A stretch of DNA of 46,421 nucleotides from Azoarcus sp. (lineage in GTDB: Bacteria > Pseudomonadota > Gammaproteobacteria > Burkholderiales > Rhodocyclaceae): positions 1-46,421 of the forward strand of contig JAIRXQ010000078.1 of the NCBI GenBank assembly GCA_031268195.1. Direction: 5' to 3'. Within the stretch, counting starts at the first letter, position 1; each line of letters opens with the position of its first letter. Position numbers and translations under genes: made by a program. Shown here one piece after another: positions 40,009 through 46,421 of the stretch. The notes beneath the pieces were generated by a model. The model made no database searches, was not told where the DNA came from, and saw only the letters and a program-made list of their open reading frames with translations.

Positions 40009-40043
40009 GATCGCTCCCCTTTTTCGCGTTCGCTTTGTTCGTT

Positions 40044-40070
40044 CGTGCTTCGTGCTTCGTGCTTCGTGCT
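40044..40070. repeat. 7-bp microsatellite (CGTGCTT)3 plus partial unit
   Basis: Three perfect CGTGCTT units (40044-40050, 40051-40057, 40058-40064) and a fourth of six bases (40065-40070). It lies between the rfaE1 stop (40077) and the hldD start (40008) on the minus strand, so unit gain or loss would alter the spacing between the two genes but not a coding frame. Confidence 0.85.
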
Positions 40071-44550: not shown

Positions 44551-45735
44551 ATGGAGTTCAATTTTGACTGGCAGGCCGACAGGCGGAATCTTCCCGGTCT
44601 GAAATGGGGGCGCTATACCGGAAAAGACGTCTTGCCACTCTGGGTAGCCGACATGGATTTCGCCGCGCCCGCGCCAGTGCTGGAGGCACTCGCCAATCGC
44701 ATATCGCATGGCATATTCGGATATACTCACCCATGGCCATCGCTCATCGACGCCGTGGTCGAAGCGCTGGCGCGCGACCATGATTGGCGTATAGATCCAG
44801 ACTGGCTGGTCTGGCTCCCCGGCGTGGTCAGCGGCTTCAACGTCGCCTGTCGCGCCATCGGCTCGGCAGGCGACGGCGTGTTGACCGCCACACCGATCTA
44901 CCCTCCATTTTTCACCGCCCCCACCAACCAGGACCGCCGCCTCGTGTGCGCGCCGCTCGTGCTGGAGGCGGAAAGCGCCCGCTGGCAATGGGATCGCGCC
45001 GCAACCGTTGCCGCCATCGACGCGCGCACGCGCCTTCTCATGCTCTGCAACCCACACAACCCCGTGGGCCGCGTATTCGACGAAGACGAACTACGCTGGA
45101 TCGCAGCGCTCGCCGCCGAGCACGACCTGATCGTATGCAGCGACGAAATCCATTGCGGGCTCGTGCTCGACTCCGACAAAAAACACCGCCCCATCGCCGC
45201 CCTCGGCGCGGACATCGCCCGCCGCAGCATCACCTTGATGGCCCCGTCGAAAACATGGAACATTCCCGCGCTCTACTGCGCCATCGCCATCATTCCCGAC
45301 GCCGCCCTGCGCGAGCGCTTCCAGCGCGCCATGAACGGCATCGTTCCCGACATCAACGTACTCGGCTTCGTCGCCGCCGAAGCCGCCTACCGCCACGGCG
45401 ACCCGTGGCGGCGCGCCCTCATCGATTACCTGCGCGGCAACCGCGACCGCGTGCTCGAAGCCGTCGCGGCCATGCCCGGCCTGAAAACCACGCCGCCCGA
45501 AGCCACCTATCTCGCCTGGATCGACTGTCGCGACAGCGGCCTGGAAAACCCCGCCGCGCGCTTCGAGGCGGGCGGCGTCGGCCTGTCGGACGGCCGCGCC
45601 TTCGGCGCACCGGGCTTCGTACGCCTCAACTTCGGTTGCAGCCGCGCAACGCTCGATGAAGCATTGGCCAGAATGACGCGGGCGCTGCAAAAAGGTAATC
45701 ACAAAAAACCATTGCGCCCCCCATCTCCAAAGTAG
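44551..45735 (+). CDS. patB: PatB/MalY-type PLP-dependent cystathionine beta-lyase
   Basis: A 394-aa fold-type I aminotransferase. MEFNFDWQADRRNLPGLKW starts it; LPLWVADMDFAAPAPV and GIFGYTHPW are typical of PatB/MalY. LCNPHNPVGRVF and CSDEIHCGLVL hold cofactor contacts, and the PLP Lys lies in MAPSKTWNIPAL. The C-terminal FVRLNFGCSRATLDEAL carries the substrate carboxylate Arg. The start has CGGAG 10 bp upstream. Family members cleave C-S bonds in cystathionine or cysteine conjugates. It diverges from the MBL gene. Confidence 0.92.
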   Translation: MEFNFDWQADRRNLPGLKWGRYTGKDVLPLWVADMDFAAPAPVLEALANRISHGIFGYTHPWPSLIDAVVEALARDHDWRIDPDWLVWLPGVVSGFNVACRAIGSAGDGVLTATPIYPPFFTAPTNQDRRLVCAPLVLEAESARWQWDRAATVAAIDARTRLLMLCNPHNPVGRVFDEDELRWIAALAAEHDLIVCSDEIHCGLVLDSDKKHRPIAALGADIARRSITLMAPSKTWNIPALYCAIAIIPDAALRERFQRAMNGIVPDINVLGFVAAEAAYRHGDPWRRALIDYLRGNRDRVLEAVAAMPGLKTTPPEATYLAWIDCRDSGLENPAARFEAGGVGLSDGRAFGAPGFVRLNFGCSRATLDEALARMTRALQKGNHKKPLRPPSPK

Positions 45736-45839
45736 TACGATGCCAACCGATTTTCTCTCCTATCAAAGCATCTTCGATAAATGACGGGTGACTTATGAAA
45801 CAAGCACATACAATGCTTACAGCATATTCAAATAGTCTA

Positions 45840-45861
45840 CCCCCCCCCTCCCCCCCCCCCC
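45840..45861 (+). repeat. Homopolymeric C9-T-C12 tract upstream of the hemagglutinin gene
   Basis: Nine C (45840-45848), one T (45849) and twelve C (45850-45861) in a row, inside an otherwise AT-rich 213-bp gap (45736-45948) after patB. It lies 87 bp before the ATG at 45949. An upstream ATG at 45795 reads through the tract and stops at 45873-45875; losing one C would join it in frame to the downstream gene. GAATAA just after the tract could be a -10. Such tracts are typical of phase-variable surface genes. No patB terminator is evident. Confidence 0.85.
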
Positions 45862-45948
45862 GCATTCCATTTGAATAACCTCCCCGCATCCGCGCCGCAC
45901 CTCGCATCAGAGGCGCGCAGCGCCCCCGGCTTTCTCCCGCCGCGCTGG

Positions 45949-46421
45949 ATGCGCTGGATCGCGCGGCTACTGATCCTCACCCTCAGCACACAGCCGGCCC
46001 TGTCTTTTGCGCAAACCTCTCTAGCGCAGACCTCACCGGCGCAAACCACCCAGGCCAGCGCCCCCCTCGGCGGCACACTCAAACACACCGGCAACAACGT
46101 CCCCGTCATCGACATTGCCGCGCCCAACCGCGCTGGCGTCTCGCACAACCAGTACCAAACCTACAACGTCGGCCGCGAAGGGCTCATCCTCAACAACATT
46201 GCCAACCGCGCCGCGCCCACGCAGCTGGGCGGCTGGATCGGCGCCAACCCGAAGCTCGCCGGCGGCGCGGCGCGCCTCATCCTCAACGAAGTCATCGGCC
46301 CACAACGCAGCCTGCTGCTGGGCCCCACCGAAATCGCCGGGCAGGCCGCGCACCTCATCCTCGCCAACCCGCACGGCATCACCTGCAACGGCTGCGGCTT
46401 TCTCAACACCCCGCGCGCCAC
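45949..46421 (+). CDS. Filamentous hemagglutinin/CdiA-like TpsA exoprotein, N-terminus (cut by window edge)
   Basis: The first 157 residues of a two-partner secretion exoprotein. From ATG 45949 there is a clean signal peptide: MRWIAR, hydrophobic LLILTL, cleavage at ALSFA/QT near residue 21. The TPS domain follows, with GVSHNQYQTYNVGREGLILN, TQLGGWI, NEVIGPQRS, LLGPTEIAGQAAHLILANP and HGITCNGCGFLNTPRA, close to the CdiA/FhaB consensus (NPNGI and CxxCGFxNTP). The protein would be exported by a TpsB/CdiB pore and is usually thousands of residues long. Whether it ends in a toxin domain is not visible. The ribosome site before 45949 is weak, leaving the start open. Confidence 0.88.
   Translation, partial: MRWIARLLILTLSTQPALSFAQTSLAQTSPAQTTQASAPLGGTLKHTGNNVPVIDIAAPNRAGVSHNQYQTYNVGREGLILNNIANRAAPTQLGGWIGANPKLAGGAARLILNEVIGPQRSLLLGPTEIAGQAAHLILANPHGITCNGCGFLNTPRA

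What the first reader, a model, noticed from the sequence alone, without database searches (positions are those of the whole stretch)
45780..46060. Poly-C tract poised to phase-switch a CdiA/FhaB-like exoprotein
C9-T-C12 sits just before a TPS-domain adhesin or contact-toxin gene. Two readings fit the sequence. (a) Translational: ATG 45795 is in frame 0 and the adhesin in frame 1; deletion of one C (or gain of two) fuses them with no stop between, adding about 50 residues before the signal peptide, while the present length stops at 45873. (b) Transcriptional: the tract lies where a -35/activator spacer would be, with GAATAA after it, as in the C-stretch promoters of Bordetella fim genes. Either would give ON/OFF surface variants.
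Basis: partly seen in the sequence, partly recalled or inferred. Interest (0 to 1): 0.8.

Follow-up and report, generated by a model that had tools for sequence, protein, structure and literature searches.

The report
Repeat-switched family of secreted surface proteins
A run of about twenty cytosines sits between the likely start codon and the export signal of a large secreted surface protein gene, at a place where runs of other lengths sit in sister genes of the same bacterium, so the gene is probably a reversible on/off switch that is read as off in this assembly.

Summary
C9-T-C12 lies at 45840-45861, after ATG 45795 and before the signal peptide of a TPS-domain exoprotein (TpsA) cut by the contig end. 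It belongs to a gene family: the genome has at least 11 copies of the same 5' cassette (promoter-like motif, ribosome site, ATG, leader). Eight are assembled through the tract, with tracts of 6 to 22 bases, and all 8 are out of frame with the exoprotein. The two tract-free relatives with an intact ATG (own contig C54; sister species G014) are in frame, which supports ATG 45795 as start codon. In sister species G008, (CGGT)9 takes the same position. Out-of-frame copies still show purifying selection (pN/pS 0.25-0.37). Option (b), a promoter spacer, is disfavoured, because promoter-like motif and start codon lie upstream of the tract. The kind is known (fhaB G-tract, autB AAGC repeats); the expanded family of separately switched TpsA genes, with another repeat unit in a sister species, is the unusual part. 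No length change within a strain could be observed: each species is one draft assembly, and long tracts assemble poorly.

The parts
45712..45741 (+). promoter-like motif TTGCGC-18 nt-TACGAT
   Evidence: same place in all 11 own cassettes; C54 has TTGCAC-18-TAGGAT, G010:C23 TTGCAC-18-TAGAAT (sequences printed, motif read by eye). A strict sigma-70 scan found no site, so it rests on cross-copy conservation.
45781..45798 (+). five-codon mini-ORF MTGDL whose stop overlaps the leader ATG (ATGA)
   Evidence: same arrangement in 20 of 21 cassettes examined; in the other (G010:C23) a 13-codon upstream ORF ends at the same base
45786..45794 (+). Shine-Dalgarno-like GGGTGACTT directly before ATG 45795
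   Evidence: read by eye; GGGTGACTT in all 11 own cassettes, GGGTGG type in G008 and G014
45795..45878 (+). leader ORF from ATG through the tract to stop TAA 45876-45878, out of frame with the exoprotein at the assembled length
45840..45861 (+). C9-T-C12 tract, the proposed slippage switch
   Evidence: variable in length among copies
45871..46421 (+). exoprotein frame after the tract: signal peptide (core about 45949-46014, by eye) then TPS secretion domain, cut by the contig end
   Evidence: Pfam PF05860 residues 53-182; TIGR01901
44497..45735 (+). upstream neighbour: PatB-family C-S lyase, not a TpsB
   Evidence: TIGR04350 E 1.6e-130

Best explanation
The tract is a simple-sequence contingency switch acting on translation. 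Transcription starts just after the promoter-like motif (about 45748) and ribosomes start at ATG 45795. The tract length decides whether they reach the signal peptide and TPS domain in frame (ON) or stop after about 27 codons (OFF). Slippage of DNA polymerase on the C run changes the length reversibly. The genome carries at least 11 such cassettes at different loci, so each TpsA would switch independently, most being OFF at any time. Shown: position, frames, the multi-copy family, differing tract lengths, in-frame tract-free relatives, purifying selection. Inferred: slippage in living cells, the promoter, ON/OFF protein levels, surface export by a TpsB.
For: Eleven own cassettes plus the diverged tract-free C54. 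Eight assembled tracts: C9TC12, C2AC11, C8AC, C7, C8, C8, C6, C8; 8 of 8 out of frame (7 of 8 also by the signal-peptide motif; C51 by the GCA anchor only, as its contig ends before that motif). Tract-free C54 and G014:C18 are in frame from ATG. G008:C127 has (CGGT)9 at the same place and is out of frame; G010:C23 has C14, out of frame. pN/pS among out-of-frame C78, C53 and C64 is 0.25, 0.37 and 0.30. Indels outside the tract between ATG and the TPS domain were 3, 9 and 15 nt. A C14 follows an ATG before a FeoB-like frame (by eye) in G004.
Against: No in-frame allele was seen in 10 of 10 tract copies with an intact ATG and a readable downstream frame, although a third are expected (nominal chance about 0.017, but the copies are related). 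The leader is variable, without codon-position bias (variable columns 5, 5, 3 at positions 1, 2, 3). C11 runs occur in 19 of 21 genus genomes; of those fetched, several lie beside intergenic repeats at contig ends, so a long C run is not by itself a sign of a switch. Tract lengths come from draft assemblies, with poly-G artefacts suspected at two related sites. No reads or second isolate of the strain were available.
Confidence: 0.75

Rival explanations
1. The exoprotein starts after the tract (TTG 45871 or an internal ATG near the signal peptide). The ATG 45795 ORF is a leader peptide whose stop lies at or near TTG, so translation is coupled and all lengths express; the tract only tunes the level.
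For: All 8 own assembled tract copies are out of frame, yet the three that could be compared show purifying selection. In one length class the leader stop TGA overlaps TTG: C18, C74, C14, C64, C51. A homologue without this leader exists in G020 (MTSRDLYPAPPGLLPPKGMR).
Against: No Shine-Dalgarno before TTG 45871 (by eye). TTG is absent there in G010:C23 and C54. The tract-free relatives with ATG are in frame with it.
Confidence: 0.13
2. The tract is a promoter spacer like the C-stretch of Bordetella fim genes and changes transcription.
For: GAATAA follows the tract, and C-stretch promoters are known in Bordetella (PMC1891110, passages).
Against: Shared promoter-like motif, ribosome site and start codon lie upstream of the tract; GAATAA is absent from G008 and G014; tract-free relatives keep one frame.
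Confidence: 0.05
3. Neutral slippage or assembly error in degenerate, silent copies.
For: Poly-G runs at C30 and G010:C93 look like sequencing artefacts. The start codon is ATA in three cassettes of other species (G014:C49, G014:C144, G010:C91). No ON copy was found.
Against: Purifying selection; repeats at one position in three species with two different repeat units.
Confidence: 0.07

Closest known systems
fhaB homopolymeric G-tract of Bordetella pertussis (PMC7446907, passages seen)
   Same: TPS exoprotein gene switched by frameshift in a homopolymer run; 49 of 49 isolates sequenced there were allele mixtures
   Different: there the G10 tract is about 1.08 kb inside the gene; here the C tract lies before the signal peptide and the genome has at least 11 cassettes
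autB and autA of Neisseria meningitidis (PMC5118866, passages seen)
   Same: repeat just after the start codon in the signal-sequence region; autB is strongly OFF-biased
   Different: classical autotransporters with AAGC repeats
hmw1A of nontypeable Haemophilus influenzae (PMC8262952, abstract and outline seen)
   Same: phase-variable TPS adhesin
   Different: heptamer repeat downstream of a promoter changes expression level, not frame
opa genes of Neisseria (recalled, from no call)
   Same: about a dozen similar surface-protein genes, each with its own repeat in the leader
   Different: outer membrane beta-barrels with CTCTT repeats, not TPS exoproteins
Bordetella fim2/fim3/fimX C-stretch promoters (PMC1891110, passages seen)
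   Same: poly-C tract of variable length
   Different: tract lies in the promoter; here it lies after the start codon

Membership tests
simple-sequence contingency locus (translational) | repeat tract longer than chance at the 5' end of a coding region | tested here: met
simple-sequence contingency locus (translational) | tract length differs among related copies and sets the frame | tested here: met
   paralogues and sister species; not within one strain
simple-sequence contingency locus (translational) | reversible length change in a clonal population with ON/OFF expression | not testable with these tools
   no reads or isolates of the strain
two-partner secretion exoprotein (TpsA) | N-terminal TPS domain after a signal peptide | tested here: met
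   PF05860 E 3e-29, TIGR01901; signal peptide judged by eye
two-partner secretion exoprotein (TpsA) | TpsB partner | tested here: inconclusive
   the genome has one full ShlB match beside C54 and eight partial ones at contig ends; linkage to the window copy cannot be seen, as the contig ends
extended signal peptide region (ESPR) | match to a known N-terminal extension profile | tested here: not met
   no Pfam match at E 0.01 for the two leaders scanned, C54 and G014:C18
CdiA contact-dependent inhibition | C-terminal toxin with immunity gene | tested here: inconclusive
   the gene is cut; contig C34 ends in a fragment 69% alike to C53 residues 331-384, followed by a C-terminal region without Pfam match and a CPCC protein gene (PF14206)
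Bordetella fim-type C-stretch promoter | tract in the promoter, upstream of the start codon | tested here: not met
   tract lies downstream of ATG 45795 and its ribosome site; that ATG is the start is itself inferred

The most novel reading that the evidence does not exclude
An opa-like repertoire made of two-partner secretion exoproteins: at least 11 similar 5' cassettes scattered in one genome, each with its own slippage tract set before the signal peptide, held mostly OFF, possibly with different C-terminal domains, and with the repeat unit itself differing (C run or CGGT) between species while its position is kept.
Probability: 0.4. Interest if true: 0.65.

Novelty: new variant of a known kind. 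Interest (0 to 1): 0.5.

Why it matters
Slipped-strand switching of single TPS adhesins is known. A genome with at least 11 separately switched copies could show many combinations of large surface proteins or contact toxins from one clone. The position of the repeat is kept while its unit differs between sister species, which makes it possible to ask whether selection keeps the switch itself. The OFF bias resembles autB and raises the question of what such cells gain by rare expression.

Tried and rejected
Promoter-spacer reading: rejected on position. A sigma-70 consensus scan found no site in 45500-46100, and the best-scoring hexamer pairs of the script mostly differ from the motif I describe, which rests on cross-copy conservation read by eye. 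The ATG inside the TAGAATG-like motif was considered as the real start: it is in frame with the leader start in the 4 G008 cassettes, G014:C18 and C49, and G010:C91, but it ends at -10 in 8 of the 11 own cassettes, and C54 has none there, so not preferred. ESPR: no Pfam match. Codon-position bias in the leader: none; the post-tract counts include misaligned columns and are not used; one search recounted the first 80 bases (2, 2, 4 at positions 1, 2, 3; too few). Cross-species pN/pS (0.86 and 0.83) looked near saturation and is not used; the within-genome part failed and was redone. Poly-G runs at C30 and G010:C93 were considered as inverted switches and judged likely artefacts, not proved. In one search the C51 frame came from a missing anchor; it was re-derived. 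Naming the organism failed: the genome-contig scan gave 36 loci, nearly all Pseudomonas, and says records near the window's genome may be left out; a viral contigs pattern scan gave 0; plasmids gave 101 records, the ten listed matching only the TPS part. Paper searches listed no paper whose title or abstract start describes a repeat-switched multi-copy TpsA family; of 34 and 53 I saw 20 of 65 and 12 of 77 rows, and this library only. Passages of PMC6211672, PMC539331, PMC11868660 and PMC5422565 were also seen.

Full report
What is there. The window is the whole contig C78 of a 2.53 Mb, 87-contig genome. At 45840-45861 stands C9-T-C12. Upstream lies ATG 45795, preceded by GGGTGACTT. Downstream the exoprotein frame runs through a signal peptide into a TPS domain (PF05860, E 3e-29; TIGR01901) and is cut by the contig end. 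From ATG the present frame stops at TAA 45876-45878 after 27 codons, so the assembled copy is OFF if ATG 45795 is the start.

Is it more than chance. Outside the tract the longest C or G run in the window is 8; the expected number of runs of 12 or more in the genome, extended from the window, is about 0.08, and 0 of 40 order-3 simulations gave a comparable 22-mer. In the own genome 18 C/G runs reach 9 bases (overlapping rows merged by hand). The only three of 11 or more belong to this gene family; one of them (C30) is a G run at a contig end that I think is an artefact. Against uniqueness: 19 of 21 genomes of the genus hold a C11 or longer run somewhere, and of the 13 stretches I fetched in other species none shows this cassette; several are intergenic repeats at contig ends.

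A gene family. A DNA search with the 5' region found 11 cassettes in the own genome (C78, C18, C53, C49, C74, C14, C64, C51, C7, C30, C72) and promoter-only remnants on C46, C52 and C3; the diverged tract-free copy is C54. Eight of the 11 contigs end in the leader, in the tract or within about 60 codons after it (C7, C72, C30, C51, C49, C74, C14, C18); C64, C78 and C53 end further in. Near-identical repeats break short-read assemblies in this way (read type inferred). The genome also has one TpsB gene with a full ShlB match, beside C54, and eight partial ones, each within 14 bases of a contig end and followed by different sequence. Inference: about 8 to 11 tpsA-tpsB loci broken up or collapsed in assembly.

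Frames. Eight own copies are assembled through the tract: lengths 22, 14, 10, 7, 8, 8, 6, 8, and 8 of 8 are out of frame (7 of 8 also by the signal-peptide motif). In sister species G010:C23 (C14) and G008:C127 ((CGGT)9) are out of frame too; G010:C91 (C8) has ATA in place of the ATG and is also out of frame. Not judged: G010:C93, a chimeric contig end, and G010:C14, which ends in its C run; G008:C5, which ends just after its repeat, and G008:C136 and C73, which end before it; own C7, C30 and C72. The tract-free copies with ATG, C54 and G014:C18, are both in frame; tract-free G014:C49 is in frame but has ATA; G014:C144 also has ATA and ends before the motif. So where the tract is absent the ATG frame is the exoprotein frame, and where a repeat is present the frame varies with its length. 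The absence of any ON copy in 10 (8 own, G008:C127, G010:C23) differs from the third expected; the copies are related, so the nominal 0.017 overstates it. A published case, autB, is also strongly OFF-biased (PMC5118866, passages).

Selection. Between out-of-frame copies pN/pS is 0.25 (C78-C53, 178 codons), 0.37 (C78-C64, 164) and 0.30 (C53-C64, 159). Genes that had long been silent would not be expected to keep this. Indels between ATG and the TPS domain but outside the tract are 3, 9 and 15 bases in the own genome, and G014:C18 and C49 differ by 3. C64 also lacks 4 bases next to the tract, which I count with the tract. The leader is variable, most of all in C14, without codon-position bias.

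Promoter and start. TTGCRC-18-TACGAT lies with 53 bases between it and the ATG in all 11 own cassettes, TTGCAC-18-TAGGAT at the same distance in C54, TTGCAC-18-TAGAAT with 44 bases in G010:C23, and TAGAAT-like boxes with 64 bases in G008 and G014 (sequences, read by eye; distances agree). The tract is thus probably transcribed and lies after the start codon. This is not the Bordetella fim arrangement, where the C-stretch is in the promoter (PMC1891110, passages).

Relatives. In 40 other TPS loci that I picked from those fetched, all without this cassette (29 of the same family, 5 from named records of other groups, 6 of the genus), only two have a homopolymer of 8 or more within 500 bases before or 100 after the match start (other repeat types not checked). 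Several N-termini there are of the MNKxxYRIIFN type recalled for ESPR, others short. DNA searches for the cassette were made in the 21 genus genomes only; I accept it in 4 of 21 (G000, G008, G010, G014), with a possible decayed relative in G007:C239. Short weak hits in other genomes were not counted; those of G017, G009, G006 and G015 looked coincidental, those of G002, G003 and G011 were not inspected. The same-family search was by protein only (37 of 199 genomes with a TPS match).

What the protein does. Unknown in detail. C53 reads 409 codons with only TPS-type matches; the G008 copy also has a filamentous-haemagglutinin repeat match. Contig C34 ends with a piece like C53 residues 331-384, then a C-terminal region without Pfam match and a CPCC-family gene. 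This resembles the tpsC cassettes of meningococcus (PMC5472700, passages) and hints at contact-toxin exchange, but it is one case at a contig end.

Verdict. Reading (a) at about 0.75. Known kind, unusual scale.

Noticed in passing
window 45781-45798: A five-codon mini-ORF ends with its stop overlapping the leader ATG in 20 of 21 cassettes; where the ATG has become ATA the overlapping stop is kept as TAA. It may couple translation or serve as a leader peptide.
   Followed up: partly
L079 (C46), L080 (C52), L083 (C3): Promoter-only remnants of the cassette; several copies are flanked by a shared repeat (CAATCGGGTGA...GACGAGTCCGTAGCTGATGAAGAGACGAGGCTGGC) in either orientation, suggesting that the cassettes have moved.
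   Followed up: no
L224 position 1543 (G004:C27): C14 soon after an ATG before a FeoB-like frame (by eye) in a sister species: another possible poly-C switch.
   Followed up: no
L227 (G007:C2): Very long C runs, broken by a few other bases, before a frame that looks like a TonB-dependent receptor (by eye), at a contig end.
   Followed up: no
L218-L220, L228-L230 (G005, G002): Long C runs beside intergenic CTCTCCCC...GGGAGAGGG repeats at contig ends in sister species, some followed by G runs.
   Followed up: no
window 40042-40070: Four perfect copies of the heptamer TTCGTGC between an hldE-like and an hldD-like gene (ADP-heptose synthesis, recognised by eye).
   Followed up: partly
L077 (C30) and L003 (G010:C93): Poly-G in place of the expected poly-C after the leader, likely a two-colour sequencing artefact, but an inversion is not excluded.
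   Followed up: partly
L261 (C34:52500-54858): A possible tpsC-like C-terminal cassette with a CPCC-family neighbour at a contig end.
   Followed up: partly
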